A stretch of 64,000 bases of DNA, from the NCBI RefSeq assembly GCF_016906535.1, contig NC_057379.1, positions 806,001 through 870,000 on the forward strand, read 5' to 3'. The position numbers were made by a program, and so were the translations under genes. The notes under the pieces are model-generated. The model worked only from the letters and a program-made list of their open reading frames with translations. It ran no database searches and was not told where the DNA came from. This DNA is from Rhizoctonia solani (lineage: Eukaryota; Basidiomycota; Agaricomycetes; Cantharellales; Ceratobasidiaceae). Below, in pieces: positions 21,391-59,185 of the stretch (position 1 is its first letter; every line of letters begins with the position of its first letter).

Positions 21391-22589
21391 CTAGTGGCGA
21401 GCATCTTCTGAAGCACCCATTCGATTGTTAATATTTTTGGCCCCAATTCCCCTCGCATGTAACATCCTACGCAGAGCGTTGCATTGAACCCCCCACACCT
21501 CGGCGCCAAAACGCGCAAGCTTATTGAGCCCACCTTCGCTCATCACTTCGTCCCAATTCAAGATTGTATCCTCTTCTTCCCATGTGATCGCCCGACCGTG
21601 GCCTGTCTCTCCCTCAAAACTCATATTGTACCAAAGCCTTTCCAATGATTCGATCAAAATCCGGTAGTTTGTTGATTTAATAGATATTTGCTGCGCTATA
21701 ACGTAAAACGTCCCTCGAATAGCATGCAGCTGAGGCTTGATTGTTCGAACTGAGCGCGCAACACGGGATAAAGCTAGGAGTATGCGTGCTCCCAGCGCCT
21801 TTTCAAGATGGGAGAGCTTGAGGAAAATGGTCCCTCCAGCCGAGACAGCGCGCAATCCCATAAGAAGCTGAGAGATCAGTAGTCGTGTCCAGTTCCATGG
21901 TCTGTCCATGTTATCGGGATTGTTGCGCAATGAATGGCCGTCGCATACTACTAGATCGAAGCTGTTGAGTTCGAAAGGCAAGGTTCCTAGCTGGACAAAG
22001 AGTGTTTGTGGTTTAGGAATGGAGGGCGCAAGATCGAAATTGGTTAGATCTGCTGTGCGTAGCTCCATACGAGGAAGTAGATCAGCTGGGATTGCTAACC
22101 CGTGCCCTCCGTCCTCAAAAGGAAGCGATATGCCAAGCCCTGTAGCCAGTGGGCATTTCTGTAAAATGTACGTGGAATAACCGCCAGGGAAACAACTAGC
22201 GCATTTGTTTAGAACATTTTTAAATAAACTAATTCTTCGTTTACTTACCCAATATCTATGAACCGATTTGTGTGAATAAAGCGTTTCTGCCTATCCATTT
22301 GACTAAGGCTTTTGCACATCAGATGCAGCCACTTGGTATCATCTTCAGGAGACCTATTAGTATCTGCAGTCGTCCGCTGTGCGAGAAATACGCTATCCAA
22401 AGATTCCGATTCCCATCCCTATTGAAATTCGATTATAAAATATATATGCGTCGGACTTGTGCATCCTACCTGGCTTCGTAATGCCGCAAGTTCGGCCAGT
22501 ATCGCACAATCCGGGCGAGCTAGAAGAGCTTGAAGGAGCTCCTGGGATTTGAGAGCATGGATATCGAGAGACGGATCCTCGCTCATCAT
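21391..22589 (-). CDS. FtsJ-like methyltransferase, class B (copy B1)
   Basis: Three exons from high to low: 22470-22589, 22249-22418, 21391-22195, all in phase. The N-terminal helix ends ELLQALLARPDCAILAEL; a linker follows, then the FtsJ-type Rossmann domain. SAM loop (motif I): RFIDIGCFPGGYSTY. Motif IV: FDLVVCDGH, Asp kept. Motif VI: GTIFLKLSHL, Lys kept. At motif VIII the canonical S-x-E-x-Y is replaced by RGTFYVIAQ, with no Glu. The N-terminal Lys of the RrmJ tetrad is not apparent (helix CKSLSQMD). The C terminus has LERLWYNMSF and WEEEDTILNWDEVMS, shared with copies B2 and B3. RrmJ-type enzymes methylate RNA ribose 2'-OH; whether this protein does so is doubtful. Reading frame appears intact. 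Confidence 0.8.
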
Positions 22590-22749
22590 AGAATATACCA
22601 GCTCAGATATGTCAGGATCGGCGAGAGGGTACGCTGAAGGAGAGACGGGTATACTGAGGAAGAGACAGGCCGAACAAGTGGCTAATAGACCTCTTTATTG
22701 ATGCTGAAACCTACCAAACACGGGACATTCCGTAGCGCCCGGACATTGT

Positions 22750-23591
22750 TCAAGTGGCTATAGGGTAAGCCCCCAAGGTAACATGTGATTTATCATGATA
22801 GTCGACGAACTCATGAAGCACTCTGCGAAAGGAACTCGCTGTGGCTTTCCAGTTATGGATTATCGGCTTGATGATCTCCAGGAGATAAATGTCTTTCTCC
22901 TCCGATCGGAGGCCGTTCGGTATGTTCTCCGTGTGCCTCTGATGAGTCAATTAAATCCAGTAGTTTCTTCATAGTTGTTGATTGGGAGTGAGCTTGGACA
23001 GTTATCATATGGAGGAATCCTAGGACGAACACAGCCACTACTGATGGGCCAATTGGTCCTTAAGCCCCTTCAGAGCTAACCTTCTGTTTCTTTGAAACCA
23101 GTACAATGCACGATCTTTCACGTATCAACCACGCCGAGAGGGTGCTGCCACAACGATGAACTATGAACAAGCGCATCCCATTCAATGCCCCGGAACTTGC
23201 CTCATTCTGAGATGAATCTGTCATAGTACCAAACGCGGATATACCCCAACCACGAGGTAGACAGGAGGTCAGTTCACTATTTAGGAGTTCCAGGTCTGGT
23301 ACTTCGAGTTCAAGTTCTCCACGACTTTCATACCCCAAATACACTCGATATCCAACTGCTTCGAAGCGATTATTTAATAAGATGTCGCTCAAGTCCAAAG
23401 ATATGCGCAAACCTCTTCTAGCGCGCGTGAGCATTCTTTCTATTTCTCTATATAGGCAAGCGGAATGTAGCTTAATCAAATATGATATTGAACAGCCTGC
23501 AAGTGTTCGGTCTTCGAGCATATCATCCTCACGCAGTTCACTGTCATCATGGCACCCGGATGCCTCTGTGAGGCTCTTTATTGATAGGTGA
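22750..23591 (-). CDS. Hypothetical protein
   Basis: Minus-strand open frame from about 23591 to 23060 with protein-like content (RVYLGYESRGELELEVPDLE, LPRGWGISAFGTM, LSAWLIRERSCIVLVSKKQK). An intron with GT near 23078 and AG near 22928 joins it in phase to an exon encoding EKDIYLLEIIKPIIHNW and ending at the TGA at 22750. The true start is not clear: no ATG heads the long exon, and a possible upstream intron reaches towards 23640. I do not recognise the family. It lies 160 bases downstream of copy B1, whose start is at 22589, and in the same orientation, head to tail. Confidence 0.5.
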
Positions 23592-23618
23592 AGCAATAAT
23601 CTAATATTCGATTGAACT

Positions 23619-24068
23619 ATGACTTGTACTTACGTACGAACTATTGAATTTGCGGAACTTCTGTATAGGTCTCGCGATGTTAGCCCTTTCGACAACGAGT
23701 CGTCACTTGGAAGTGAGACGGACCTAACGAGTGGTCGCACTTCCCCTGAACCACGATACGATCTCTCGCCTGTCTCTTCTACCACGGCACAATGCAAAAC
23801 ACAGGCACTGAAGAATGATACAGATATCAAGCTTACAGATTTCACACCTGATATGCCCACCTCTGTGCTGGTCGCAGCTGCTCGGGATGCTGCCGCCGCA
23901 GTCGCCGCAGCCACGAACCCCGGCTCGTATTCGCCCATCGACGAGCCGGAGTTTTATGTTGGATTTGGTATTTTACCAAAGAAAGAGGTCACGTTTCGAA
24001 GACCGCGGCGTGCACGCGCAAATCGATGGGCATTGGCCACTCGCCGTTACGTGGATATCCTATCGTAG
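23619..24068 (+). CDS. Hypothetical protein, Ala-rich
   Basis: Single-exon ORF of 149 codons with an ATG. A Ser/Pro-rich N-terminal half is followed by VLVAAARDAAAAVAAATNPG, then EPEFYVGFGILPKKEV and a very basic C terminus (FRRPRRARANRW). No family recognised. An opposing frame exists on the minus strand over the same bases, so strand assignment is tentative; the plus reading has the better start and the more protein-like C terminus. Confidence 0.4.
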   Translation: MTCTYVRTIEFAELLYRSRDVSPFDNESSLGSETDLTSGRTSPEPRYDLSPVSSTTAQCKTQALKNDTDIKLTDFTPDMPTSVLVAAARDAAAAVAAATNPGSYSPIDEPEFYVGFGILPKKEVTFRRPRRARANRWALATRRYVDILS

Positions 24069-24397
24069 ACCCAGACAATCATCTCCGTGCATTTATCTGG
24101 ATAAATGCCATTAGCCCTTGTCACTGTATACTTATCATCATTTGTTCATGTATTTCGTCGATCTTTTGTATAGTTATTCATCTTTTCCATCTACCAAATG
24201 TTATCCTAAAAGTAGATCTTTCCGTTGCGTCATGAAATTCTATAAATCTCTTTAGCAAAGAACTGTAACACTGAAATGGGAGAGACTCGGTAATGGACCC
24301 TGAATAGATGACCGCTTACCTAAGGTAATCGACGCGCGTCCTTCATTGGTGCAAGTCTAACGCGTACAGTGATCCTAGCCAACCCCTCCACCACAAC

Positions 24398-27300
24398 ATG
24401 CCTGAAGTACCCCTCCCCGTAGCGCCCGTCACATCGGATGACCCCAAGAAAAAGGACGAGGAAAAGGCCAAGCAAGATGCTCAGGGTTCCGCTGGAAAGC
24501 CAAACGGCGACAAGAAGGAAGGTGAAGGCGAAGAGCTGGTAAGTGACTGCCTCTTGTAGTGGACCAGGGATCTGAACTGCTCCTTAAAGTCAGAGGAAGA
24601 TCAGCAACTTCGTAATGAGCTCGAGATGCTTGCAGAGCGCCTCAAGGTATGTAGGTTACATGGCTCGCTTACGAGCGCTAATAGGCGTGTAGGAACCCGA
24701 TACTTCCTTGTACAAACCGGCTCTGGAGACACTGAGGACCTTGATCCGAACGTCTACCTCTTCAATGACATCGGTCCCAAAACCCCTAAAGTTCTTGAGA
24801 CCTTTGTACCCGGAATTGCAAGAATTGTATGAGAAATGGCCCGCTTCAGACGACAAGGTGAGTAACCCTCCATCCAAAGCGCATATTCACCCTATTTATT
24901 GTGAATCATTGTTTAGAATCTATTCGCGGACATACTTTCCGTCCTTGCCATGACCTATTCGGATACTCAGCCTCGCGGGACCCTAAAATACCGCCTGGCA
25001 TCGACTGCCGCTTCTAAAACCCCCTCCGACCCAGGATCCTGGGGCCATGAATACATCAGACACCTGGCTGCTGAGCTTGGTGCAGAATATCTACTGCGTA
25101 CCGGTACAGGTGGGGAGCCTGGCCAAGAAAAGTTACCCGGGAAAGAGGGCGACGAGGGAATAGAAGAGCTCCGAGAGTTGGGTCTTACTTGTGCCAAGTT
25201 CTTGCTCAAGCATAACGCCGAAGCGGATGCTGTCGATCTATTACTTGAGCTGGAGTGCATAGACCGTATAACATCACTGGTGGATACGAACACTTACGCG
25301 AGGGTGTGTCTGTATATGGTTTCGTAAGTCTTCATTCTTTGCTTTAGCCACTCTTTGGATTAAACTTTGCGGTAGTTGCGTCAACTTGCTTCCTCCTCCC
25401 GATGATCTTGCTTTCCTCCGAACTGCACACGAGATTTACATCAACAACTCAAAATTCCCCGAAGCACTTGCACTGGCGATTAGGATAGGAGAACCCGAGC
25501 TAATTGCAAAGGATTTCAAGGCCCCGGGCAACGCGTGAGTGATTAAACACTGGGGTCTTCACAGTTTTTTAAGTGGCTTTGGTCTTATAGACTTATGAAA
25601 CGGCAACTCGCTTATATCCTGGCCCGGGCCCAAACACCAATTGACTGGGTGCAAGAACAGTCAGAGGATGAGAACGAGATGGATCCCGTAGAGATGCCGG
25701 AGGACCTATTGGAATGCTTAAGCAATACCAAATTATCGACGCACTTCAAGGCGTTCGGGAAGGAGGTTGGAGCCGAAGAGGCACGCACTTTGGAGGAAGT
25801 CTACAAGAGTCATCTTGAGCCTGCCCGTGAGTTTGGCCTGGGTTAATATTCGCGCATAAGCTTACTATTTATACCAGGATCAATGACCACCGTCGATTCG
25901 GCACGCGCGAATCTTGCTGGAACCTTTGTAAATGCGTTTGTGAACGCCGGATTTGGGAACGACAAGCTCATGGTCACGGCCGAAGAAGGCAACAGCTGGA
26001 TTTATAAGAATAAGGATCACGGTACGACAATGATTCACATATATTTGCTTAATAATTCAATTGCTCCCTTCAGGCATGCTCAGTGCTGCTGCCAGTCTTG
26101 GCCTCAGTTTACTATGGGATACTGACCTTGGGCTCAGCCAAGTCGATAAGTATACTTATGCCGAAGAAGAATATATCAAGGTAAACGGGACATCACAATG
26201 CGGCCGGGTTTCAACTTAACATGCCTTTGTAGGCTGGGGCCCTTCTGGCAACTGGTATCCTGCACTGCGGAATCCGTACCGAAACCGACGCAGTTATCGC
26301 GTTATTGGCAGATTATGTCGAGAACAAGAGCGTACCACTTAGGACATCTGCATCAATCGGGTTGGTATCTAGGTTTCTTTTATTCTTTGGTCACGGGGGC
26401 TGATTTATTTCGATGCGAAGTATTGGCATCGCATATGCAGGAGCATATCGCCAGAGCTTAGCAGAGCTATTGCTCCCACTCGTCGCTGATGAAACACTCA
26501 GTATGGAAGTCTCTTCCCTTGCAGCCCTTGCTATTGGCTTTATTTTCGTCGGAAGTTGCAACGGCGAGGTCGCGATGACCATCCTTCAAACCCTGATGGA
26601 GCGTGATGAGTCGGCGCTTAGCGACAAGTGGACCCGATTCATGATTCTGGGGCTGGCATTATTATACCTTGGTAAGTAGACAGATTCATGTGCGCTTGAA
26701 AGTGAAACTGAGGTAATTATTTTCGCAAAGGTCGACAGGATGCCTCGGATGCAACAATCGAGGCCTTGCGCGCTGTGTCCCATCCGGTTGCCAAACAGGC
26801 ACTTGTACTCGTTGAAATATGTTCGTTTGCCGGGACAAGTAATGTTCTCAAGGTCCAAAGGATGTTGCACGAATGCAATGATCACATCGAAGGGGACGAC
26901 TCCTTCCAGGCGTTTGCCGTCATTGGTATCGCCCTAGTTGCAATGGGCGAGGACGTTGGCGCCGAGATGTCGTTAAGACAATTCCAGCACTTGGTAAGAC
27001 ATCCAGCACTTTTCCAGAGCTACTCTTTAACCTCTATCGATAGATGCATTACGGCTCTCCGACTATTCGAAAGGCAGTTCCTCTGGCGTTGGGTCTCATC
27101 AGCGCATCCAATCCTCAGCTAAGCATCCTCGACACTCTTTCCAAATATAGCCACGACAACGACCTTGCCGTCGCCCTTAATGCCATATTCGCTATGGGTC
27201 TTGTCGGCGCCGGCACCAACAACGCAAGGCTTGCACAGATGCTGCGACAACTGGCTGGTTACTACCATAAGGAACCCGATTGCTTATTCATGGTGCGCAT

Positions 27301-27870
27301 TGCTCAGGGCCTGGTCCATATGGGCAAGGGTACTTTGAGTATCAACCCATTCTTCAACGACCGCAGTATCATGTCCAAGCCTGCTGTTGCTGGAATTCTT
27401 GCCACACTTATTGCATTTACGGATGCGAAAGCTTGTAAGCGCTGTGTATTGGATGTTAAATTGGCAAGATGCTGACCAGGGTAAACCACTGCAGTCATTC
27501 TCGATAAATCTCACTGGATGCTCTACTTCTTGGTTACCGCAATGTATCCTAGGTTTATGATTACTTTAGACGAGAAGCTCGAGAGCCTTCCGGTCACAGT
27601 GCGCGTTGGTCAGGTAAGTAGCTCGAATGGATATATATCACCGGAACTGGACCTCACCCTACGAACCAGGCTGTCGATGTCGTTGGCTTGGCAGGTAAAC
27701 CTCGAACCATATCTGGATTCCAAACACATCAGTCGCCTGTACGGTTGGGAACAACAGAACGTGCTGAGTTGGGCACAGAGGAGTATATTCCATACGCAGC
27801 GGTGCTGGAAGGCTTTGTTATTTTAGAAAAGAATCCTGGTTATGTGGACGAGTCAAAGATGGAAATGTGA
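24398..27870 (+). CDS. RPN1: 26S proteasome regulatory subunit RPN1
   Basis: Largest non-ATPase subunit of the proteasome base; it docks ubiquitin receptors and shuttle factors. About a dozen exons join in phase from ATG 24398 to TGA 27868. The N terminus is charged ([11 protein letters not shown]). Typical RPN1 blocks follow in order: [76 protein letters not shown], then proteasome/cyclosome repeats forming the toroid ([54 protein letters not shown]), and the conserved C terminus [19 protein letters not shown]. Length is about normal for the family. No frame break was found, which makes it a useful control against the many indels elsewhere in the window. Confidence 0.93.
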
Positions 27871-28829
27871 ACAGGTACAATACTGTAATAATGCATACTT
27901 TTTATTATCTTTCTATTATTTGTGAAATTATAGCTGTTACTCGTACGGCTCGATCAGGCCCAAATGGAGAATGGGAACAAGGCACTAGGAGTATTCGGGT
28001 TGCACACTGATATTGCATGTACTGAGGCACGAGAATTTCGCCTAGTTACGTTCATCTCAGTATCGATACTGTGCTTCAGGGCCTCTCTTGAGCGAGAGTA
28101 GCCCATGTATGCGGGTGCGTCTACATAGAAACGGCTTGCCGCCATGATACCGAGTGCAAAGCGATAGATGGGGAGACGCTGGAGCCAGGGCCCCTGAGAC
28201 GCAGTACGACTCATGGGCCGAGTGGGACATCTGCGCTCGACATCGTGGCAGAAGGGAAGTTAGGCGGCAAGAAAAAGACATGCAGCACATTGCTCAAGCC
28301 GTCTGTCTGCAAAACCCGGTCGATGCTCGCGATTGCTCAGCAAAGCGCTAGCGAAGTCGTGACCCCCTAGCCTTAGTCATGATCACGGCCTCAGTGGTGA
28401 TCGTGCCACTCCGCGGGCCACGTGGGTACCACTTCATATCACCCTCATTCTACTTTGAATAGCTAAATATTATAATCGCACGGATCCAGATACAAAACGC
28501 TGTGGTCAACGGACTTGGCCTTTGGTGGCAGAAACTGCCTTACAACCAATCTGTGTCACCTCCCCCCGTGTGCTTTTCTACCCTCTTTACCACATATGCC
28601 CTATATAGTTACACACATAACACGACATATAGCCCCCACATTACGAGTGTGCCCAGGCCAGCTATAGGTTATCATATTCTAATTCTTTTGAATGTCGTAT
28701 TGTGGAGCGTTCCATCGAAATCAAAATCGAGGTGCATGCATATGATAAGAATAGTACCCAGCTATAAATGGACAAAACGTTGTGTCCGTTCAGAATAAAT
28801 TTATGTTACTATGTATAGAAAGACGTGCT
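27871..28829. other. Intergenic, weak minus-strand ORF only
   Basis: Holds the RPN1 3' end. A minus-strand open frame at 27954-28214 (LPIYRFALGIMAASRFYVDA) reads somewhat like protein but joins nothing and belongs to no family I know. Confidence 0.35.
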
Positions 28830-29765
28830 TACCGTGGTAACAACTATACCAGCGATGGCCGTAGCTGGGGGATGAGCCGCCCAGGTATATACGATTATTC
28901 GAAGCATGAAAGTGTAGAATCCACTGCGATAAAACGTGGGTGAAATATTTTCTGAGAAATCATTACCTAAAGACAACAGGAACGGATAATCCCACAACCT
29001 TGGCCACTATATAGTCTCTCTTGCTTCCACAGCGCCCATCACATTTCGGGTGATTTGCCACTCTCTGAACGTCCGACTGAGCTTCTACATCACGTCTATC
29101 TTTCTTTCGTGCACACTCCCACCGGTACTCCAACAATCGGATCTGGTCACCCTTTAGTAGGCTACAGACATGTATTCACAGTATCGATATCCACTGCGAA
29201 TAATCGGAATTCTGGTTCTGACTTACCTGAACCGCCGAGCCGAAAGCAATGAGAGGGCAGCTCCAAAGGTTGATATCAAAAGGCCAATAATAAGTAGCGC
29301 ACTTGCGCCCTCTGAACATTTTGCGGCTCCGCAGGCTTCGTCGCAAAATAGCGACTTAGCCAGAGCATGTAGCGAGCAACGTGAGGACCGCTTCATGCCG
29401 TGTCGACTTGCGTCCGGCCTCCTCCGCCGTCTGGCCTCGTACACACCGAGTACTGCGGCACGCCTTTGCGTGTCGTTTTTATCCCACTCACCATCCCGTA
29501 GGTCACGAGAGCTGGTTTGGGCCGCCCAACCACGAGCCAGGCTCGCGGTCGAGCGCCCCCGGTCCACCCTCGCTGCTTCGCAGCCGCACGGGCTCCCCAG
29601 CCTCACCAGTCTGCATATCGTGGCCGACGCGGGCGAGCGGGCAGAGGATAAGTTCTGAATTTAGGATGATCGGGTATCTCTGAGACCAGCCCCAGGCATC
29701 GTTACTGAACCCCAGCAACAAAGGTCGAAGCGATGCCCGACGCCCAAAATCCTGATCAGGGTTAA
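28830..29765 (-). pseudogene. Decayed copy of the four-helix membrane protein at 32064-33199
   Basis: Minus-strand segments match the intact gene at 32064-33199 in the same order: STFVAGVQ, then a stop codon, then RCLGLVS; ASALLIIGLLISTFGAALSL; DQIRLLEYRWECARKK; SVPVVF; and the last helix SGFYTFMLRIIVYTW. Between the first and second blocks lies a GC-rich stretch of about 320 bp (roughly 29320-29660) absent from the intact gene, and the long charged loop is shortened. The in-frame stop and lost frames argue for a pseudogene. Confidence 0.65.
29320..29660. repeat. GC-rich insertion in the membrane-protein pseudogene
   Basis: Segment of higher GC than its surroundings that interrupts homology to the intact paralogue. 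At its left end an inverted repeat ATTTTGCG...CGCAAAAT (29318-29325 and 29342-29349) encloses 16 bases. It could be a small transposed segment; no clear target duplication was seen. Confidence 0.35.
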
Positions 29766-33199: not shown

Positions 33200-33594
33200 T
33201 ACTGCTGGTCAAGAACACTTTTCGAAAACGCAATCGATAAATAGTGAATACCAGCGTCAATGGGAAATTGCAACGGCCAAAGTTGTAGGCAATCTGGTAG
33301 AGGTCTTTGGATAGGGAGGTGGCATTTATCTGTGCAGCATGCGAGGACACGCTGGGAACACGCACCATAATACTCGTGTTCAAACCCCTGTAAAAGAGGA
33401 TTAGGTATCGTAGATAGACGCTGGGGGTGTCTGGGGATACCCTGGTGACGAGCGGGGTAGATCGATGCATACTGGCAATTATCCTAGGAGCAGCAATTGC
33501 TATTGGCACAAATTGCGATAGCAAACTTGTTTAGTGACTTGTGAATGTAAGTTTAATGGATTAGGGAGACATTGTGCGAGGCATTAACAAGCGC
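33200..33594. other. Intergenic, nothing recognised
   Basis: Spacer between two minus-strand genes. It should contain the promoter of the membrane-protein gene and the 3' end of the sugar transporter; no distinct element seen. Confidence 0.45.
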
Positions 33595-47005: not shown

Positions 47006-48198
47006 ATGGTTGTTGGGCCATACTTTCCTAGCGATGTCCCTATACTCCCTCAGAATAACCCACCTACATATACCCCCAGCGACGCTTCAACCTACTCCCC
47101 TACTAGTACCTCCACATTCTCTGTTTTCCCTCATCCTGTCCCTCCACCTAGTAACTACTTGTCATGTCGATTTCATACCAATGGAATGAACATACAATGT
47201 ATAGATTGTTTAGTGCTGGCTGGATATGTTCTCCCTCCGTTTAATCCATACATCGTACCTGGATCAGGTCCGCCACCTAAGACAATCGGACTCAATAATA
47301 TGTTCTCGTCACATGAAGAAACGTATATGCACAAGATGAGATTTGCGCTAGAAGAAATGGATAGGAAGTACAGCTTTGTTCGAGACGGTTCTTTCTTGGA
47401 CCTCGGGTAAGTCAATTCAGCATTTAACTAGCTAATTGAACTGACGTGTTTTCGTCCAGTTGTTGTCCAGGCGGCTTTTCAACGTACATCCTAAGCAAAT
47501 ATCCCAACGCGCAAGGGATGGGCATATCCCTTCCAATCGAATACGGTGGACATTCGTTGGCCGTTCCACTTCATTTACGAGATCGGCTCCAGGTCCACTG
47601 GGCCGATGTGACCATGTTCGACCATGCTCCTTCGTTAGTTCAAGGGTTTTGGGATACAACCATATTTCAAACAAGTCCCGTTCCCACGCGAGCGTTCGAC
47701 TTTGTGATCGTAGACGGACACCAACCACCCTCCATGCTCGCTGGTGACCCCCGCGAATCTTGGGGCCGTGACAGACTGTTAATTTCGCAACTTTTGGCTG
47801 GATTGAGAGCGATCAAACCAACCGGAACCTTGTTTGCCAAGTTGAGTCTTCAAGTGTCAGTCCCGCTCATGGAGCGTATCGTCGTTGCCCTCAGTCGCCT
47901 CACCCCCATTCCGCTTCGCGCCGTCAAACCTACAAGTATATATGCTACGGCGGGAACATTCTATGTCCTTCTTCACGCACCGATCCCATACCTCTGTGAT
48001 CGACTCATTAGGATTTTAGAAGGTCTATGGTATTTTATGACATTTAGTGGACCAAACCATTTTGGAAGAGGGTTGAAGGAGAGCGATATGGACCTGATTG
48101 CCACATACGGAGAAGTATTGGCTGCGAAACCGAGGTTGAACCTCTTGTTTCAACCAATTGAGGAGATTAGGAAGGCTGCAAAGGCCGCTAGGAATTGA
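47006..48198 (+). CDS. FtsJ-like methyltransferase, class A (copy A1)
   Basis: Two exons, 47006-47406 and 47460-48198, joined in phase. The N-terminal 90 residues are Pro/Ser/Thr-rich and contain CRFHTNGMNIQCIDC, a CxxHx7CxxC motif that could bind zinc. A helix (MRFALEEMDRKY) precedes motif I, FLDLGCCPGGFSTYIL. Motif IV is FDFVIVDGHQPP (Asp kept) and motif VI is GTLFAKLSLQ (Lys kept). Where RrmJ has WFKLDEI with its catalytic Lys, this helix has RFALEEM, so Lys appears replaced by Ala. At motif VIII, YATAGTFYVLLHAP has no Glu. The C terminus carries LEGLWYFMTFSG, shared with the family. Two of four tetrad residues are therefore absent. SAM binding is likely; 2'-O-methyl transfer is uncertain. 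Reading frame intact. Confidence 0.82.
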
Positions 48199-48797
48199 TG
48201 ATTTTATTTGTGGGTAAAACAAAGTACCAAGCGGCAAGAATATATTCATATAAGATAATGCTAGATCTTGGATTTGGATTTCTTGAGAGCTTTAAGGCGT
48301 TGCTGGAACGGGGTCGTTTGGCAGCGCGCCCAAACGCCGTTTGAACGACGCCAAGAGTCTTGTGAAATCTACTATGCTCGTCGAACAAATGTAATACCAC
48401 AAATATGTTTCCTGCCTTTAATGTATAGTGAATGCTGAAATAGGATTTCGCGTGCTATTTAAAATACCCAATTCGTTCTGGTCGGCTTGCCCAAAGTTGT
48501 AGTCGGATAAGGACCCGATACAGGATCAATTTCATAAACCCGGCCCGCAGAATTTGAACCACGACCAGAGTAAGCAGGTTTATATTTACTCCCACTCCCT
48601 CATATATCATGGCGGCCTTCCTCTCTATTTCACCGCCGGTCGATACGAATACCATCGTTCTCGAAGATCCGAGATCCGAAATATCCGTTCTATGCTCAAA
48701 GGTTTAGCTATCCCGGCCTAGCTAGCAAACAACTCGACGTGTAATCTCTACTTAAATACAGTAATTGCTATCTGGTCAGAGTCCATCGTTCCTCGCT
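48199..48797. other. Intergenic, nothing recognised
   Basis: Spacer between FtsJ-like copy A1 and the dehydrogenase-like gene. No reading frame or repeat of note. Confidence 0.45.
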
Positions 48798-49918
48798 ATG
48801 GTGATTCCTACTCGAGACAAGCACTACCTTTTTGGGTACCCTGTCCTCCACTCTGCGTCCCCAGCATTCCATAACTTGATTTTCCAATCAATGAACACGA
48901 ACAAGACCTACGAATGCTGGTCCACCTCGCGCATTACCCAGGAGATGATGGATGTTATTCGTAGCCCCGATTTTGGGGGCTCGAGGTAAGCCATTCCAAA
49001 CGCTTCGAGTGAACCAGGCACGAACACAAGTCTAGTGTTACAATGCCCATGAAAGTCACGGTCATGAAATATTTAGATGAGATCACTCCCGAGGCCAAAG
49101 CTGTTGGAGCAGTGAACACGATCGTTCCTGTTCTCGATCTTTCAAGCGGCGTTATGAAGGCAGTTGGTACAAACACAGACTACTTAGGCGTTCGTAACTC
49201 TCTTTTACGACAACTCGGCCTACAGGTCAACCGTACATTTTCCTCATCCAACACATTCCCTCCTGGGCAGGCCGCGGCGCTATCTATTGGTGGAGGTGGT
49301 GCGGCCCATTCTGCAATTTACGCAATGCATTCAATGGGCCTCGCACCTATCTATCTGATGAACCGAGACCAATCCGAAATCGACGCTCTGTTCGAGTGCT
49401 TCCCTGGCCTCCCGTTGGTACATTTGAAGACTATTGCACAGGCAGAAAAGGAACTGGCTGGAGCGAATCGACCGCCCATCGTTGCGATTGTTGGGGCTAT
49501 CCCAGCTTATCTACCAGTCACAGACGCCGAGCGTGGTGTATACAACATGATCACACACGTGTTGACACAACCTTATACACCACCAACAGCTTCAGATGCT
49601 TCGAACCTTCCCCTCCCACACCAACGCTTGTTCCTTGATATGGCCTATCGCCCGCGAAATACACCGCTCTTACAAATCGCGGCTGCATTGAACTGGGAAC
49701 CCATCGGAGGTATTCAAGCTATGATCGAACAAGGATTGGCTCAAAGCAGAATGTGGCAGTCCGGAGATGCTTCAGTTGATGTTGCGTGTGGAGACAGAAT
49801 TGGAGATGATGTTATGACCAAGGCGAGGGATTTTGTTGAACAGATGGCAGATGTAGTCGTGGTAGGGAAGGAGTACGATCGTGCGCAGGATTCTCCGGAT
49901 GCTCCCTTTCGGGTATGA
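48798..49918 (+). CDS. Shikimate/quinate dehydrogenase-like protein
   Basis: Two exons, 48798-48985 and 49036-49918, joined in phase (S-V-T-M-P-M-K). AroE/YdiB-type oxidoreductase: substrate loop GYPVLHSASPAFHN, VTMPMK with the catalytic Lys, GAVNTIV, and NTDYLGV with the catalytic Asp. The nucleotide-binding domain follows with SIGGGGAAHSAIYAM and the loop LMNRDQSE. About 357 residues, longer than bacterial AroE, and not part of a pentafunctional AROM protein. Standalone fungal members usually act in quinate/shikimate catabolism or as sensor relatives. The sugar/quinate-type transporter at 33.6-36.0 kb is 13 kb away with unrelated genes between, so no pathway cluster is claimed. The ATG at 48798 is chosen over an upstream in-frame TTG. 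Confidence 0.82.
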
Positions 49919-50497
49919 TATCTTCTTTGTATTCAACTTTGGTATCTCTGCATCTCTCACTTTGTATTATGCTCATGAATGCAGACTTTGATTCCGTACA
50001 GATTGGTTCGATCGATATGAATTTAGGCGGTTCACGGGTGGCTAAGAAATACTTTATCTTGGGATGATTTCATTCACGACCTACCAGTTACGGTTCATTC
50101 ACCCAGTGGCGGGTACAGAATCATATGCCCCACTCGTAGCCACCCGAATATTGGGGCCATGTTGATCGGGCGTCTATCCGGGTGACATGCCGATAAACCC
50201 ACAGCGTTCCACCGCATTCGTTACCTAGCACCACCAGCAGACTCAATTATTGTTCCCCATCTATGGCACACGACACCGGTTCAACGCGGGAACAATGAGG
50301 CGGCGTTGAACCTCTGTACCTTTTTGACCAATTCTTCTCTCTGTGCTACATCGTCACGTCAACCTCTTGAGGAGAAGAATAACCGGGGATGGTTAGTCGC
50401 CGTCAAGTGGCTAAACTGGTGTCCACATTTATGGCGTTGGGTGTTACCTTTGCGCTCCATCGTCACTCACCATCTGTATTGAAGAGCGACAGATGCA
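49919..50497. other. Intergenic, nothing recognised
   Basis: Spacer upstream of FtsJ-like copy B2; no distinct element seen. Confidence 0.45.
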
Positions 50498-51632
50498 ATG
50501 GCAGCTACTCTCGACACATTTTCATGGCACTCAGAGACGCTTTCCCGGGCTCTTGTAGCGCGCTCCGACTGCGATACCCTTACGGACCTCATAGTGCTGC
50601 GTGATCAGGTGAGTCAGTGCTCTCAACCCTTTATGATTGCCTCTCAACCTGATACACCAGGGAAGTGGGTCAGAAAATATTGATAATTATTTCTCGAAAG
50701 AACGGCAAAAGGCCCATGATGCAAACAACGTTGAGAGGTCTTTGCGTTTGCATTTGAGAAGTCCATGGAGAATATGAATCGAAGTGTATGGATTCCGCGC
50801 ACATACAGCTTCTTGGATCTTGGGTACGATATTATCAAGTTCGCTAGTTTCCTTCGCTCACTCTCGCTACAGATGTGCCCCAGGAGGCTTTGCGCAATAC
50901 CTTTTACGGAATAATAAGAGAGCTTACGGGATCGGAATTTCCTTACCCGATGAACAAGGCGGCAGTAGGTTCGGTGTTACATATCCCGATTACCTTGCAC
51001 GGTACGAACTTCATTGGGCCGACCTGACTATGTTCGACCTCGCGCCGAGTATTCCCAAACCGGTCAATTCCCTCCACGACTACCCTCCGCTTCCTTTTAA
51101 ACTTTGTTCTCGGGACTTGGTTGTATGCGATGCCCAATGGGTGCTCAACCCCGACAACCTCAACCGGCCCTGGAATTGGACCCGACTGATTGTTTCCCAG
51201 CTCTTGATTGCTCTACACGCAGTCTCGCCTCACGGAAACATATTCATTCGCCTTTCATGCGTCGAGCGCACCCTTACCGGTCGAATTCTCCTTGCATTGT
51301 GCCGAATTTCAGATCTGGTTCGCACGGTCAAGTCTGACCGGTTTCAGTCAATGCGAAGTTATTTTTATGTTCTCGCTCAGCGCGTAAACCGTCAGTCCAG
51401 TGAATTCAGGAACTTGGTCGTCGCCCTTGAGCGACTATGGTATATAATGACTTTTGAGGGAGAGAACGGGTACGGACGGGACATTGGCGCCGAGGACGAA
51501 GAGTTGATTACGACTGATGAGGAAATACTGAGTGAAGAGGGCCTCTCGACGATCGTTCAGCTTGGTACACCGATATGGGCGATACAGTATGATGCTCTGT
51601 GTTATTTTTTGACCAATCGTGGTGTAGTTTAG
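50498..51632 (+). CDS. FtsJ-like methyltransferase, class B (copy B2), frameshifted
   Basis: Exons 50498-50608, 50661-50823 and 50873-51632. The N-terminal helix LSRALVARSDCDTLTDL marks class B. Motif I after splicing is SFLDLGCAPGGFAQYLL. Motif IV is RDLVVCDAQW, Asp kept but Gly lost. Motif VI is GNIFIRLSC, with Arg in place of Lys. At motif VIII, RSYFYVLAQ has no Glu. The C terminus has LERLWYIMTFEGENGYGRD. In exon 2 the frame shifts near 50744-50752: the upstream frame gives VERSLRLHL, while the family helix (FAFEKSMENMN) continues one base out of register. One missing base would explain it; a recently broken copy is the alternative. With Lys and Glu both changed, catalysis of the RrmJ kind is unlikely. 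Confidence 0.75.
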
Positions 51633-52053
51633 TCGCGTGATTCATGGGGTTTTTGCTTGTTCCTGGCATACAATGACATCGACAAGTGTGAAAATTAAAT
51701 GCAAATCGTCACATTCCGTGTCATTCGATCCGTTCGCACTCCGCAGTCCCTTTAGCCAATAGGCAAAACATCGCTTGACTCGAAGTACACGAGGATCAAA
51801 AACGTGTTTCTGTGCACATGTATCTACCAAATCGGTCCTATCGAGGCACGTTTGACGGCATTTCCAGCACATTCCAGATATGTTATCACGCCGTAGCCAC
51901 CTTCTCACGGGCCGTGGCAAGGGTATGGGGTGGCTAGAATCGTAGCCACGGTATGATTTAAGAGCTCGAACCAGTTTTCTCCCCTCGTTCTTTACCCCTC
52001 CGCCCTTGCTTTGCTATCATCGCTATCATATATTCGCTATCGCACCTCATACT
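51633..52053. other. Intergenic, nothing recognised
   Basis: Spacer between FtsJ-like copies B2 and B3. No reading frame or repeat of note. Confidence 0.4.
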
Positions 52054-53228
52054 ATGTCTTCCCTCACCCCTAAGCCTGCGCTGGACGCTGTAGCCGAAGC
52101 CGAGGCCAAGTGGTTGACTGATGCACTGCTTGGCCGCCGCGACTGCGACACCTTTCGCAAGCTCAAGGATCTCTGTCGCCACGTACGTTCTTCCTTTACT
52201 CTTCCGAAGTACTTAGCTCAAGGGATCGCCGTGCAGCTACGCGGGAGTGCTATCCCCCTCGCTTCCGCTCCCCTCCCCCTGCGGGCCAAGAACGCATCAC
52301 CCAGTGCGCGGACGCTATGTATCGGATCTTTCAATCTATGCATCAGGGCTCGGATCCGTACAGTTTTGCGCGCCGCGCGCGCTGTTTCTTGGAAGTCGGG
52401 TCTGTACAATAGCACGTTCTATGCAATCGAGTCACATCTAATTTGTTGATTGAAATTTTCGTTGTTATATGCAGTTCCAACCCCGGCGGGTTTACGAGGT
52501 TCCTCCTCGAGCAACCTCATACGCACGGAGTAGGCGTCACCCTCCCCGTCGACGAGGGCGGGATCGGCCGGGCCATCCCGCCCAACGATCGTTTCGAGCT
52601 CCACGAGCTCAACTTACTCGACCTGGTGTCACATTACATATCGTCCGGCACGCTGCCTTTCACTCGCACGACGTTCGATTCCATTATACTTGACGTAGAC
52701 CACTCGTCACCTCGACTCCTAGTCGCACAATTACTGCTTGCCTTATCCACCATCCATGATGGTGGTCAGATCCTTCTGACACTTTCCTGTATCGAGCGGC
52801 CCCAAGCCGCCCGCATCCTGATCGCCTTCTCGAAAGTAGCTGATTATATCAGCCTTTCGTCACCACCCCAGGCCCAGACCTGGGGTGTGTTTTATTTGCA
52901 TGCACAAACCGTTAGGGTAAATACCCCGGCTTACCGTAAACTTATAGACAACCTGAAAAGGTTGTGGTACCGAATACACAGCACACACACAAGAGATCCC
53001 ACATGGGATGAAGAAGATTTAATTACCCCCTGGGAGGAAGTGATGAAAAAGTCCAATATGGACTTGATAGCTAAATTAGGAAACCCCGTATGGGAGACTC
53101 AACTTAAAGCCCTATATAGGGTTTTGAGGTTGATTCTAACCAGTCTGATTATCAAATATAAATATGTTTTATGCATTGTAATTATCGACTTTTACATATG
53201 TTTTACATGTATATGCTTTATGTCTTAG
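52054..53228 (+). CDS. FtsJ-like methyltransferase, class B (copy B3)
   Basis: First exon from ATG 52054 ends near 52182 and encodes AKWLTDALLGRRDCDTFRKL, the class B helix. A middle exon of about 180 bases and a third exon starting near 52483 follow. Motif I is degenerate: CFLEVGSNPGGFTRFLL. Motif IV is FDSIILDVDHSS; motif VI is GQILLTLSCI, with Thr in place of Lys; motif VIII region is WGVFYLHAQ, without Glu. The C terminus keeps LKRLWYRIHS and WDEEDLITPWEEVM, then a hydrophobic tail. The first intron cannot be joined to the needed frame of exon 2 with the best splice sites, so a one-base indel or an unusual junction must lie near 52180-52230. This is the most diverged of the five copies and probably not a canonical methyltransferase. 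Confidence 0.7.
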
Positions 53229-54723
53229 GTTGTATGCCCCATGTTGTATGTAGTATGGAGAGAGAGGAGGCGGTGGGGATGTTTTAGGGCACCAAACAAC
53301 TTAAGTAAGGCTGCTGTACGTAGCACAAGGTTGGGCCTTAAGCCCGGCTTTCATTGTTCAAATATCATATATACAAATTGCCATCGCATATCGAGCGGCG
53401 AATATTCGAAGCAAGATAAAACAAGACTGAGTGTTCCGACTTCGACGCGATCGTGGTACTTTGAGATAAACTATAATACGACCCTCATCGAGTAGGGAGA
53501 AAACAGCGCGAATGTAATGCCGTCCAGATGCTTCAGTGTATTGCGAACAATACCACTCACCAATATAGCTCGTCGCATAGAGATACAGCCAATCGATAAA
53601 GTGTTATCCCAGTCGTTCTCCCTCCTCTCCCTTGGCCTCGTCGCCCAACCCTCGCGTGTCGGTACAGCACCGTACTATTCTGTTGGATACCAATTAAGAC
53701 CAATTTAACTGACGAACTCATATAACGTACGGCATGGTTGGATAAGCCTCATGCAGCGCTATCGCACGACGGTGATTGGTAGGCCAAGCATCCCACAGTC
53801 CACTCGGCACGATTGGAGGTCTCATCATTGCGATGGACAGGGGTAATGATGGAGAAGCCAAGGTACCGAGGACCAAGATTGCCGTATAGACACGTAATAA
53901 TTCGAGTCAGGTTTAAGTGTGAAAAGGGCTCGAGGGTGTTATCCACACGCGGGGATAGACATAGGGGAGATGTACGGCCGAGATAATGATCGAGGATCGT
54001 CGTAAAAGATACGGTTGGGTCGCCAAGTCGATGCTGGGCAACGAGACGAGACATACTTGTGCAGATAATGCCATGCACCATACCTTGAGTAGAAGTGTTG
54101 GAGCCACGCGAGCAGAAGAAGATCAAGTTGGAAAGATGAAAAGTGGCATGTGTCGTCTCGTGAAACTAAAGTCCGTCAGGTATCGGTGAAGCGGGAAATT
54201 CGCTGCCTAAAATAACCAACGAGCGGATATTAGTGAGATATCTCGGTTATTTCGACCGAAATAGTAACCTCTGCCATACCGTGCTTGATGTCATGAGGAG
54301 TGTACGCACGCTAGAGCCTGGTGGATGGTCGTTACAGGCTGGGGAACTGATTAGAGGAAGCACAATCATGTGATATTCAGGGTGCATCAGCCCTGAATTT
54401 ACGTGGCTATACGAAGAGTCTTATCTCTTGCAAATTCAGTTCTCTTCGCTGACGCGGGGTAGTCGGTTTGTATGCGCGACTTTTCCGTGCCTTGGCAGCG
54501 ATGAATAAAAGACAGAGGAGCGCAGTTACGGGCGTCTAGCATTATACCTTTCTTCTACCTTCCCTTCTCACCCTCGCAGTGAGCCCGGGGCGCTCGGAGC
54601 CAGCTTGACCGCTCATATCAACATAACCGTTATCAAGAGCCAAGCCGAACTGTCACTTCAAGGCACTATCTTTTAGGCCTGATAAATAAGGCTCTCACCC
54701 CGGTTTCACAAGCACATCTCGCC
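53229..54723. other. Long intergenic stretch, nothing recognised
   Basis: About 1.5 kb before the ammonium transporter. The longest frame (53749-54126, minus, 125 codons) has no recognisable similarity and no exon partners. Promoter of the transporter should lie at the right end. Confidence 0.4.
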
Positions 54724-56417
54724 ATGCCGAACATCACCTATAGTGTTTGTAAGTTGGTTCTCTACCTACTTAGCTCGTCTGACCGGCGACTTTAGCCAAT
54801 GATATCGAGTATTATGATGCTGCGAGCGGAGAAACTGTTGTTTACAACCTGGGTGACATTGCCTGGGTGCTTGCATGCACGGCCCTCGTCTGGATCATGA
54901 TTCCGGGCGTCGGATTCTTCTATTCTGGTCTATTGCGTCGTAAAAACGCGCTGAGCATGATTTATTTCAGTATGCTATCACTCGCAGTCGTTCCTTCCAA
55001 TGGTTTTTCTGGGGATATTCGCTCGCATTTTCCGATGGCGCGAGTGCATTCATTGGCGACTTGAAGTACTTTGCACTCAAGGGCGTTCTTGACCAACCTT
55101 CCATGGGCTCTACACGTATCCCAGCCCTCGTATTCTGCGTCTACCAGCTCATGTTCGCGGCCATTACACCCATGCTCGCACTGGGTGGCTTTGCTGAACG
55201 CTGCCGTCTCGGTCCCGTCGCACTGTTCGTTTTCGTCTGGACCACGTCGTATACGATCCCATTGCATGCTGGACTTGGAACGGAGCCGGTTGGAGTTTTG
55301 TGATGGGTGGCCTTGACTTTGCAGGAGGAACTCCGGTTCACATTTCGTCAGGTACCGCTGCCCTCGCCATTTCCATCTATCTTGGCAAGCGTTCTGGATA
55401 CGGGACCGAGCGCCTCGCCTACAAGCCCCATAATACCACCTACGTCGTCCTCGGCACTGTATTCCTCTGGTTCGGTTGGTTCGGATTCAATGGAGGCTCT
55501 GCCCTCTCTGCCAACCTGCGCGCTGCTCAAGCTTGTATTGTCACCAACCTTGCTGCCAGCGTCGGAGGCCTCACTTGGATGTTGTGGGATTACAGGTTGG
55601 AGAAGAAGTGGTCCGTCGTGGGCTTCTGCTCCGGCGCCATCTCCGGCCTTGTCGCCATTACGCCCGCGTCCGGCTACGTTGGTGCCCCTGCCGCTGTTGC
55701 ATTTGGCGTTGTAGCTGGCACCGCATGCAACTTCGCGACCCAACTCAAGTTCTTGCTCCACTACGACGAATGTCTCGATGTAAGTCCAGCATCAAGCATA
55801 TAGAATTCATCTAACGCTTTCACAGGTCTTTGCTTCTCATGGAATTGGTGGCATGGTCGGTAACATCATGACGGCTCTGTTCGCCCAATCGTCTGTTGCT
55901 GCGTTTGATGGATTCTCCGAGATTCCCGGAGGCTGGTTCGATCACCACTATAGTGCGTCTAAACTTCTATCTCTACCTGAAGCACCCCCTAATGATGTTG
56001 CGCAGTCCAACTTGGATACCAAATCGCTGACTCTCTTGCTGGTTTCGGTTATTCATTTGTCATGACCGTACGTTCACTTCTATCTCTGTTTAAATATGAC
56101 CTCACCCTCGCGCTTCATAGACGCTCATATGCTGGATCTTCCACTTCATCCCCTTCCTGTGTCTCCGTACCACCGAGGCGGCCGAGGCTCTCGGAATGGA
56201 CGACGCCGAGATGGGCGAATTCGCCTATGATTATGTTGGCCTTGATGCCGAGCACGGCTTCCCATCTGAACGTGGCGCTCTTCCTCCCATTTCCGGAGCC
56301 GCCGCCAACCACGAGTTGGGCTCGGGCGTAGGTGGACGTGAAGGTCCTCACCAGCGTATCTCTGCCGACAAGGGTCGCGGAAGTGTTGGTTCCAGCAACG
56401 AAAAGATTCGTGGCTAG
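54724..56417 (+). CDS. Ammonium transporter, Amt/Mep family
   Basis: Eleven-helix ammonium channel/transporter of the plasma membrane, and in fungi sometimes an ammonium sensor for filamentous growth. A short first exon (MPNITYSV) is followed by DIAWVLACTALVWIMIPGVG, FFYSGLLRRKNALS, FSDGASAFIGDL, GGFAERCRLGP, YDPIACWTWNGAGW, GGTPVHISSGTAAL with the first pore His, WFGWFGFNGGSALSAN, SHGIGGMVGNIMTALFA with the second pore His, and a hydrophilic C-terminal tail (EALGMDDAEMGEFAYDYVG). Two breaks are visible: near 54990-54994, where the frame for SFQWFFWGYSLAFS is one base off, and near 55243-55249, just before YDPIACW. Each needs one added base. Downstream exons splice in phase to the TAG at 56415. 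Confidence 0.88.
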
Positions 56418-57844
56418 GCGACTACTTGATAGTGCAATATCATCCTTTGTTTTTGTAGTCTGTTTTGTCTCTGTAGTTTCATCTTTCGGTGTTTTGGGTA
56501 TTGTTTCCCCCCACCCTTGTCGCTCTTTACAAGTAATTATAGACTCGAATGTTACCCCGTTTGTAAGATTGTTAATAGTGACAGCTGGAATAATAAGAAT
56601 TATGCTCCTTTTGAATGTCAACTTGCCCTAGGCACGTGGATACATTGGGTTCGCAAAATTCTTGAGTATCTGGCGAATGGGGGCACAATGAGGTCATCAG
56701 GCACAAAGGTTTTCCAAACTTAAGTTTGACTTTGTTCGCAGTTTTAACTTTTGGCGCTACCATGGTTCGTGACATCTAAAATAGAGCTCCTCGACTGACC
56801 AAAGTCTATAAAATAGTACACTATGGTGCGGTAAGCTGAAAACCTTGCTAAAGAAATTCAATGTGTATTTCTCGCCTCATCAACTTGAACCCTATGAAGA
56901 CCTCACCCTCCATCTTTCTCGATCAATGTTCCTCTCTTTTTATCTCGATCAACTCCCCTCCCTTTTTTCTCGATCAAGACGCCGGTCTCCATAACTCATC
57001 GTTCTATGAGAAGATTTGCTTGGCACCAGATTAGATGGCCCGATCCCCGGGGCCTGTCCATATATGCATACGAACTTATCCAAGCGCGCATATGTACATG
57101 TAAGCTGATCGCACTTGCATGCCTCGGGCATGGACAAAGCACCGCAATATTTCCGTGGGTCAAATTTATGAGAAGGAGTCGAGTTAGTTGTCCAGTATTA
57201 TTATCGCCGCCTGGCATTATCGTCGAAAGGACGCGCATATAGTCTAACTCTTGGGAGTGCATGTATTCAAATATCATTATTATGAACTATCAACCATTTG
57301 CCACTATCCTCGTAGTTTCGTCTGGTTTAATAGTATAATGCACAAAAAATCTATGCGAGAAAGCGATGCCAATTGGATCAGTTGACATTAATTAACGTCA
57401 ATTGTTGATACGTCAAAGACGCTGGGAACGACGGCTCTTGAAAGACGGGCTCCCTTGTTTTTGTGTGGTTCTGAGGAAACATACATTGAAGCCCAATTAT
57501 ATCAAGCAGCTCATATATTGCGTGCAACATCTGTTTGGATTTGCCTTGCACCAGTGTGCCCGCGGAGAGTGCCTTCCAAAAGTTTATTGGAAGATCATGT
57601 GACTGTCTGGCTTCACCTCTTTTCTCCTCGACGTCGATCGCGGCATCCTTTGGGAAAGATTCTGAGCGAATCTGACATTGTCTTTATTCTAACACGAAAT
57701 ACCCCACCCTCACTCCGCGTTTATATTTTACGATCTAATGTTGCTGTACCTGATTTGTTTGGGTTGATCTCGTTGGACGAAACACTGGTGGCAACACAAT
57801 GTGTGGTTATATTGATCAACGAGCCTGTGCTAGAGTGGCCTAAA
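56418..57844. other. Intergenic with 26-bp repeats and a long open frame
   Basis: Holds three 26-bp repeats (56917-56986), a near-palindrome TTGACATTAATTAACGTCAA at 57382-57401, and an open frame from 57455 that runs into FtsJ-like copy A2 but has no ATG before 57845. Confidence 0.45.
56917..56986. repeat. Three 26-bp tandem repeats
   Basis: TCTCGATCAA recurs at 56917, 56943 and 56969, exactly 26 bases apart, separated by pyrimidine-rich spacers. A short degenerate tandem array. Confidence 0.6.
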
Positions 57845-59185
57845 ATGGCGATTGCTTCTACGCAGCCCCAGGTTCTAAATAGATTATTCCCCCACGTTCA
57901 CGCTGGGTGGCTACAGAGTCCTCGTGGTCTAGTCCTATTAAATCACAGCACAGACAGCGACGGCCATTCGAGACTTGGTATCTACCACGACACTCATGCT
58001 TGCCTACCAACGATCTGGTCCAAACATGCCCCGCTCGCCATCCTCTGCCTTCTACCCAAATTCACGGGGGGCTTCATCGCCCTGTGTCTTTCACCGGCGC
58101 TAAGCCCCCCTGTCCAGTGCCAACACCATGCTGTGCCTAATCCACGATGCCTTGGGTGCCGGATGGCTATGGGCGGACAAGCTGACAGTTACATGGCTTC
58201 GGAAGACTTTTCGGTTCAACAGTGTTATTATTCTGACAAGCCGCCGGTAGATGTACCAGCTGTCGAAGAGTTCGCGCCGTTATCTCCAACTAGCGAAAGC
58301 AGTGATTTCACGAGTCCCATACCAGGAGAATCAGATGAAGAGTCATACTTGCTAAGAATGCGTTTTGCCATGCAAGAGCTGGATAACCAAGTCGAGTTCG
58401 TGGTCGGCAATCGTTTCTTGGACCTTGGGTACGTATCAACTTGATTGTGGGTGTGGGATAGATATTAATGGACATGCGATAGGTGTTGCCCAGGAGGCTT
58501 TTCAACATACGTCTTAAGCAAGTTACCCTCGATTGTGGGTGACGGCGTCTCTTTGCCCGTTGAACTTGGTGGGCATTCGTTGGCTGTTCCCCAGGCGCTC
58601 CGTTCCAGATTTACGGTACACTGGGGTGACATCACTCGATTCAACCACGCAAGTGGACATGCTGGGTCCGGCCAATTCAATAGATTAGCCACATTTCCCA
58701 TCCCACCAAACACATACGATCTCGTTATTGCCGACGGACACCGTCCACCCATTATCCTGAAACAAGTAGGCCACGAACAACGCTACGCTCGTGACTTGCT
58801 GCTCGTTTCCCAACTGCTTGCCGCAATAAAGGCCGTCAAAGTCGGTGGGTCCATTCTCGTCAAACTCAGCTTGTCTCTGGCGAACCAGACGTTGGACGGG
58901 TTTATGCACCGGGTCGTTGTTGCGCTCGGAGAACTTTCGAGTCGTGTGCCTTTGGTCGCGCTTAAACCTAAGAGTATTTACGCCACCGCTGGGTCTTTTT
59001 ATGTGCTCGTTCGAGGGGTCGAGGCCGTTCCACGGCGTGGACTAGAACTCAATTGGAAGCGCTGTGGATTAACTTGCTTGGGGGTGGGGCGATCAATACC
59101 AAAGCGATCAATAAATAGTCTCCGCAAAGGAAACAAGAAACAAGAAGGAATGGTTGCGGCGTTGTTGGCCTGTGCAAGATATTAG
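57845..59185 (+). CDS. FtsJ-like methyltransferase, class A (copy A2), frameshifted near the end
   Basis: Exon 1 ends at 58428, exon 2 starts at 58483, joined in phase. The N-terminal region contains CQHHAVPNPRCLGC, a CxxHx6CxxC motif matching copy A1, then an acidic Ser-rich linker. The helix MRFAMQELDNQV leads to motif I, FLDLGCCPGGFSTYVL. Motif IV is YDLVIADGHRPP; motif VI GSILVKLSLS keeps Lys; motif VIII region is TAGSFYVLVRG, with no Glu. Near 59058-59061 the frame departs from the family: the conserved LWxxxx helix is found one base out of register (LWINLLGGG), followed by a nearby stop, while the open frame runs to 59183. The start is uncertain: 57845 is the first ATG, but the frame is open back to 57455. 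Confidence 0.75.

What the first reader, a model, noticed from the sequence alone, without database searches (positions are those of the whole stretch)
21391..59185. Local family of five FtsJ-like proteins with a degenerate catalytic tetrad
Five copies (21.4, 47.0, 50.5, 52.1 and 57.8 kb) share motif I (xGxxPGG), a motif IV Asp, a LWYxM-type C-terminal helix and a conserved intron splitting the motif I glycine codon. Canonical RrmJ/FtsJ enzymes use K-D-K-E. Here motif VIII lacks Glu in all five (GTFYV, YFYVL, VFYLH, GSFYV), and the N-terminal Lys position looks like Ala or Ser in most. A SAM-binding fold kept through a local expansion, with altered chemistry, suggests a distinct fungal clade. 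Possible roles are a changed RNA methyltransferase, a regulatory pseudoenzyme, or part of a rapidly evolving defence set. Function is inference.
Basis: partly seen in the sequence, partly recalled or inferred. Interest (0 to 1): 0.8.

Follow-up and report, generated by a model that had tools for sequence, protein, structure and literature searches.

The report
Fungal cap-methylase relatives with altered catalytic site
A cluster of five genes in the fungus Rhizoctonia solani encodes proteins predicted to fold like the enzyme that finishes the cap on animal messenger RNA, but two of the four standard catalytic residues are missing in them and in the mushroom relatives examined, so the family either does the chemistry differently or has stopped doing it.

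Summary
The observation largely holds: five FtsJ-like genes, each with a phase-2 intron in the motif I glycine codon, none with Glu at motif VIII, none with Lys at the motif X position. Three corrections. (1) It is not a recent local quirk. In an 85-row alignment of relatives the motif X Lys is 0/85 and the Glu 0/85, while motif IV Asp is 79/85 and motif VI Lys 75/85; in the 51 rows not assigned to Ceratobasidiaceae three His positions are also 51, 50 and 47 of 51. (2) By sequence profile and predicted fold the nearest solved protein is the cap-1 methyltransferase CMTR1, not RrmJ. (3) B2 and B4 carry frame breaks in this assembly, the B3 exon join is unresolved, and B2 and B3 lack the motif VI Lys too. 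I favour a remodelled CMTR1-type RNA methyltransferase family with kept SAM motif and Asp/Lys pair, degenerating in some Rhizoctonia copies; a non-catalytic SAM- or cap-binding role is the main rival. A further relative in this genome (contig C9) has lost all four residues, yet its relatives are 69-91% identical: a likely conserved pseudoenzyme. No activity was tested.

The parts
21391..22589 (-). Copy A1: exons 22470-22589, 22249-22418, 21391-22195; 364 aa; S-D-K-T in place of K-D-K-E; open frame
   Evidence: gene model; PF01728 51.4 bits; 98% to R. solani P0001; intron; AlphaFold model of P0001 (not of A1 itself) mean pLDDT 87.9
47006..48198 (+). Copy B1: exons 47006-47406, 47460-48198; 379 aa; A-D-K-T; open frame
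   Evidence: PF01728 40.1 bits; deposited protein P0047 (361 aa, 100% over residues 95-379) on a contig of the same length as C10; model of P0047 mean pLDDT 83.2
50498..51632 (+). Copy B2: exons 50498-50608, 50661-50823, 50873-51632; S-D-R-Y; frame break inside exon 2 in this assembly
   Evidence: frames; 344-aa R. solani relative P0033 without the break; PF01728 38.6 bits on the part after the break
52054..53228 (+). Copy B3: exon 1 52054-52182, exon 2 within 52237-52399 (join unresolved), exon 3 52475-53228; S-D-T-V; long-branch, odd C-terminal tail
   Evidence: PF01728 22.1 bits, below cut-off; end branch 1.21
58169..59185 (+). Copy B4: in-frame part of exon 58169-58428 (true 5' end lies upstream, uncertain) and exon 58483-59185; A-D-K-S; frame break before the C-terminal helix in this assembly
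   Evidence: PF01728 47.6 bits; relative P0069 (R. solani AG-1 IA) reads on in frame

Best explanation
The five genes belong to an old fungal (Agaricomycete) family of proteins, mostly 320-400 aa, of the same stock as the CMTR1-type cap 2'-O-methyltransferases. The SAM-binding side (motif I, GCxPGGFxxYxL) and the Asp (motif IV) and Lys (motif VI) of the active site are kept in most relatives; the motif X Lys is Val/Ile/Ala/Ser and the motif VIII Glu is Thr/Ser in nearly all of them. I propose that the family is still a SAM-dependent RNA methyltransferase, acting near the 5' end or on another 2'-OH, with the motif VI Lys as base beside the Asp, and with conserved histidines (GGH after motif II, DGH at motif IV, KPxxxH before motif VIII) or a shifted Lys/Arg in the motif X helix taking over the lost roles. 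In Ceratobasidiaceae the family multiplied; A1, B1 and B4 keep Asp/Lys, B2 and B3 have gone further and are probably non-catalytic or decaying. Shown here: family extent in the lists seen, residue counts, predicted fold, intron, orthologues. Inferred: that it is an enzyme, its substrate, and the role of the histidines.
Against: Mutation K239A is reported to abolish human CMTR1 function (PMC13129544, passage), so loss of that Lys would be expected to kill a canonical enzyme. In the 34 Ceratobasidiaceae rows H286 is Y in 15 and Q in 4, and the motif VI Lys is lost in 8, so the proposed site is not kept there as a whole. The C9 relative shows that this fold is retained in the clade without any tetrad residue. 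No cap-binding residue was checked, identity to CMTR1 is 15-17%, and the fold is a prediction.
Confidence: 0.48

Rival explanations
1. A family of pseudoenzymes: the fold binds SAM and/or capped RNA but does not transfer methyl, serving as a reader, scaffold or competitor.
For: Two of four catalytic residues absent in 85/85 rows; K239A abolishes human CMTR1 (PMC13129544, passage); the C9 relative has A-A-V-A in 12 of 12 rows that cover all four sites (of 13) with motif I intact and 69-91% identity to the 13 relatives listed; B2 and B3 have lost a third residue.
Against: In rows not assigned to Ceratobasidiaceae Asp 48/51 and motif VI Lys 49/51 are kept, which a pure binding protein would not need.
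Confidence: 0.33
2. An ordinary K-D-K-E type enzyme whose first Lys is displaced by one turn or one residue in the motif X helix (position 105 or 108), with Glu dispensable.
For: K/R at position 105 in 46 of 85, at 107 in 58 of 85 and at one or more of 105, 107, 108 in 72 of 85; A1 has K108, which the VIA range against RrmJ puts opposite K38.
Against: No single position is Lys/Arg in all rows; 105 and 107 rank 259 and 138 of 346 columns in conservation in the 51 rows. The 2plw and Spb1-like profile alignments and the B1 ranges put the Lys opposite position 109; RlmE aligns ambiguously, with a five-residue gap.
Confidence: 0.12
3. A rapidly evolving defence or RNA-discrimination gene set.
For: Clustered paralogues, frame breaks, and a NACHT-WD40 gene about 12 kb from A1.
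Against: Orthologues in other R. solani groups are about 70-90% identical, the cluster seems old, and the NACHT-WD40 gene is only a neighbour; nothing seen links the proteins to virus or element control.
Confidence: 0.04

Closest known systems
[quoted passage not shown]
   Same: Best sequence-profile and best fold match, with helices before and after the Rossmann core (P0001 model 39-379 on CMTR1 177-520); Asp364 and Lys404 equivalents kept in A1, B1, B4
   Different: Lys239 and Glu441 equivalents absent; mostly 320-400 aa, and in the ten proteins scanned Pfam gives FtsJ as the only domain over its cut-off in nine (B3 none); 15-17% identity; substrate unknown
RrmJ/RlmE and eukaryotic Mrm2, Trm7, Spb1
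   Same: PF01728 Rossmann methyltransferase domain, motif I, KP before motif VIII
   Different: Lower profile and fold scores; K-D-K-E in those enzymes (recalled for the family; the E. coli RlmE and Spb1-like sequences were printed); TIGR00438 cut-off far from met (26.3 against 300.15 bits)
ASFV EP424R methyltransferase (PDB 9iq4, 9w7f)
   Different: Viral, about 14% identity; its tetrad was not examined here
'Ribosomal RNA methyltransferase FtsJ domain-containing protein' records of Agaricomycetes (UniProt/NCBI names)
   Same: These are the family itself, named by domain only
   Different: I found no characterised one in the papers searched

Membership tests
PF01728 FtsJ | score over the curated cut-off (24.1 bits) | tested here: met
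   A1 51.4, B1 40.1, B2 38.6, B4 47.6; B3 22.1 fails
CMTR1-type cap-1 methyltransferase | fold of the catalytic domain | tested here: met
CMTR1-type cap-1 methyltransferase | catalytic tetrad K-D-K-E complete | tested here: not met
   motif X K 0/85 and motif VIII E 0/85
CMTR1-type cap-1 methyltransferase | motif IV Asp and motif VI Lys | tested here: met
   79/85 and 75/85; in the window Asp 5 of 5, Lys 3 of 5 (B2 R, B3 T)
CMTR1-type cap-1 methyltransferase | binding of m7G cap and transfer to first-nucleotide 2'-OH | not testable with these tools
   needs biochemistry; cap-binding residues not checked
RrmJ/RlmE equivalog TIGR00438 | score over 300.15 bits | tested here: not met
   3 of 6 proteins given had a hit at E<=0.01, best 26.3 bits (P0047)
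Trm7/Spb1/Mrm2 | complete K-D-K-E tetrad | tested here: not met
   0/85 K and 0/85 E at the two positions; these families also score below CMTR1 by profile and fold
Trm7/Spb1/Mrm2/CMTR1 | position inside the clade in a tree with reference sequences | not tested
   too few reference sequences held; the tree holds family members only

The most novel reading that the evidence does not exclude
An Agaricomycete-wide lineage of cap-1 methyltransferase stock works with a different active site, a D-K pair plus conserved histidines and no K-D-K-E, and so methylates RNA by altered chemistry in a group of organisms for which I found no report of such an enzyme.
Probability: 0.2. Interest if true: 0.8.

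Novelty: new variant of a known kind. Interest (0 to 1): 0.5.

Why it matters
If members are active, they show that the K-D-K-E site, which a 2022 alignment of animal, protist and viral cap methyltransferases reports as strictly conserved (PMC9479742, passages seen), can be rebuilt. If they are inactive, a large group of mushroom-forming fungi keeps an inactive cap-methylase fold for another purpose. Either outcome is directly testable with small proteins. It also questions the database label 'ribosomal RNA methyltransferase' for many fungal proteins.

Tried and rejected
Relatives in viral contigs: one scan with profile A2, two pattern matches, none confirmed, so no viral source was seen at that sensitivity. 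Canonical CMTR1/CMTR2 or Trm7 in the same genome: PF01728 at E<=10 gave ten matches: a Spb1-like gene (C12:409735), two exons of a Mrm2-like gene (C7), four rows that are family members (three in the window, one the C9 relative), a C6 match that by eye is another type of methyltransferase, and two weak fragments below the cut-off. The names Spb1-like and Mrm2-like are by eye from recalled motifs. The search reads exon by exon, so absence of other genes is not shown. A tree with Trm7/Spb1/Mrm2/CMTR1 clades was not made, as I held too few reference sequences; the ranking rests on profile and fold scores. dN/dS was not possible: no DNA of related strains was held. Recent local expansion: rejected, B1-B4 are 31-48% identical to A1 and A1, B1, B2 and B4 each have their own orthologues. 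In one search I had counted the unnamed protein P0081 with Ceratobasidiaceae; one search repeats the count without it (34 and 51 rows; the 51 include unnamed metagenome proteins). The tree is a quick LG+G4 tree with SH-aLRT only, still has P0081 in the wrong label group, and warns of the long branches of B3 and P0044. The 85 rows of A3 were picked by me from 157 proteins (129 were 290-420 aa with PGG). While checking I corrected an earlier view that the C12 relative has a stop: its main exon is open. Literature: searches, judged from listings, showed no paper on this fungal family; passages were read in PMC9479742, PMC13129544, PMC9496149, PMC12061695, PMC12142624 (one FtsJ-like gene of Beauveria, an ascomycete, named in an expression list) and PMC13299246. 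Werner 2011 (PMC3113572) and the CMTR1 structure paper (10.1038/ncomms4004) are not held. In PMC9479742 'fungi' matches only 'fungicide'.
Full report
What is there. The window is G000:C10:806001-870000 of a 40.7 Mb, 16-contig genome. A1 is 98% identical to a Rhizoctonia solani protein, and the deposited R. solani protein P0047, identical to B1 over the searched region, lies on a contig of the same length as C10 (2,166,229), so the source is R. solani (Basidiomycota, Agaricomycetes, Ceratobasidiaceae). Five FtsJ-like genes are present: A1 on the minus strand, B1-B4 on the plus strand. Each has a GT..AG intron between the second and third base of the motif I glycine codon. The relatives on contigs C15, C16 and C12 share that intron position, so 8 of 8 such genes do; the C9 relative has no intron there (one open frame).

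Gene health. A1 and B1 have open models of 364 and 379 aa. B2 has a frame break in exon 2; P0033 (344 aa, a cluster of 8 member sequences) is open there, and the model deposited on the contig of this length (P0038) lacks that stretch. B4 changes frame before the C-terminal helix, while P0069 of R. solani AG-1 IA reads on. For B3 the first two exons do not join in phase at the expected acceptor. These could be assembly errors or real decay; reads are needed. The C16 relative shows internal stops and frame changes. The C12 relative is open in its main exon but has lost the PGG of motif I and, by eye, the motif IV Asp.

Extent of the family. Search with B1 gave 136 proteins at E<=0.001, of which the best 120 are listed; the named ones are Ceratobasidiaceae and, as far as I recognise the names, other Agaricomycetes such as Mycena, Gymnopilus, Armillaria, Gloeophyllum, Trametes and Irpex. 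Most carry the name 'FtsJ' or 'ribosomal RNA methyltransferase FtsJ domain' or 'hypothetical protein'; [quoted passage not shown] A quick tree of 68 rows puts 34 Ceratobasidiaceae rows, the six rows for this genome and three C9-type proteins on one side of a branch (SH-aLRT 98), apart from the other Agaricomycetes and the unnamed P0081; A1, B1, B2 and B4 each sit with their own orthologues. Close spacing seems kept elsewhere: P0002, P0032, P0049 and P0073 (A1, B2, B1, B4 types) all list a longest contig of 96,989 bases, and locus tags such as RSOLAG22IIIB_06811/06805 and OPQ81_000942/000951/000955 are near one another. So this looks like an old clustered family, not a recent burst.

Active site. 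Positions are those of P0001. Of 85 rows, motif X (109) is V33 A21 S16 I9 L3 D1 T1 and one gap: no Lys. Motif IV (214) is D in 79 (G 4, A 1, E 1). Motif VI (255) is K in 75, R 4, T 3, G, E and L once each. Motif VIII (291) is T 57, S 22, I 2 and C, N, Y, K once each: no Glu. Split by group: in 51 rows not assigned to Ceratobasidiaceae D214 48, K255 49, H160 50, H216 47, H286 51, K282 51, Y293 51; in 34 Ceratobasidiaceae rows D214 31, K255 26, H160 30, H216 28, H286 15 (Y 15, Q 4). The altered site therefore predates the Rhizoctonia copies, and the Ceratobasidiaceae lineage has loosened it further. Window copies read S-D-K-T (A1), A-D-K-T (B1), S-D-R-Y (B2), S-D-T-V (B3), A-D-K-S (B4).

Placing the motif X Lys. 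The profile alignments to 2plw and to the genome's own Spb1-like protein, and the fold ranges of the B1 model on CMTR1 (8w8f, 8p4e, 4n49, 4n4a: offset 143 in each; 4n48_B not usable) and on RrmJ (offset 58), all put the Lys opposite position 109, which is Ala96 in B1. Against this, RlmE aligns with a five-residue gap, and the P0001 range on RrmJ is shifted by one, opposite K108. A displaced Lys/Arg is thus possible: 72 of 85 rows have one at 105, 107 or 108, but no single position has it in all rows. The tool gives only first and last residues of a range, so 'ungapped' is an assumption.

C9, a conserved tetrad-less relative. The 502-aa protein on contig C9 has 13 relatives at E<=0.01, 69-91% identical over 45-100% of the query, the named ones from Rhizoctonia and Ceratobasidium. 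In 12 of 12 rows that cover all four sites (13 in all) it reads A-A-V-A, with D127, G129, PGG and Y138 of motif I intact. This suggests that the clade keeps a FtsJ/CMTR-type protein without the known catalytic residues, and it raises the odds of the pseudoenzyme rival for the window copies. It joins the tree by a long branch (2.67), so its exact place is unsure.

Judgement. Observation largely real, meaning shifted: CMTR1-like predicted fold, loss of two tetrad residues in all relatives aligned, retained SAM motif and, in most, the Asp/Lys pair. I put 0.48 on a remodelled RNA methyltransferase, 0.33 on a pseudoenzyme family, 0.12 on a displaced but ordinary site, 0.04 on a defence set. Function remains untested.

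Noticed in passing
G000:C9:1125011-1125883 (loci L020, L005): Intronless 502-aa FtsJ-type protein with all four catalytic positions replaced (A-A-V-A in 12 of 12 rows covering them) yet 69-91% identical to 13 relatives from Rhizoctonia, Ceratobasidium and unnamed sources: a likely conserved pseudoenzyme.
   Followed up: partly
window 5286-8988 (+): NACHT domain followed by WD40 repeats in neighbouring open frames: an NLR-like gene about 12 kb from A1.
   Followed up: no
window 304-1872 (-): Retrotransposon gag with CCHC zinc knuckle.
   Followed up: no
window 49043-49918 (+): Shikimate dehydrogenase-like gene between B1 and B2 (Shikimate_dh_N hit).
   Followed up: no
G000:C16:3323068-3324292 and G000:C12:1000654-1001325: Two further family members that look degenerate: frame changes and stops in C16; loss of the motif I PGG and of the motif IV Asp in C12, whose main exon is open.
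   Followed up: partly
P0117, P0143, P0145 and other database records: Most named relatives are called FtsJ or ribosomal RNA methyltransferase, three are called cap-specific mRNA methyltransferase; the predicted fold supports the latter kinship, but neither name is tested.
   Followed up: partly
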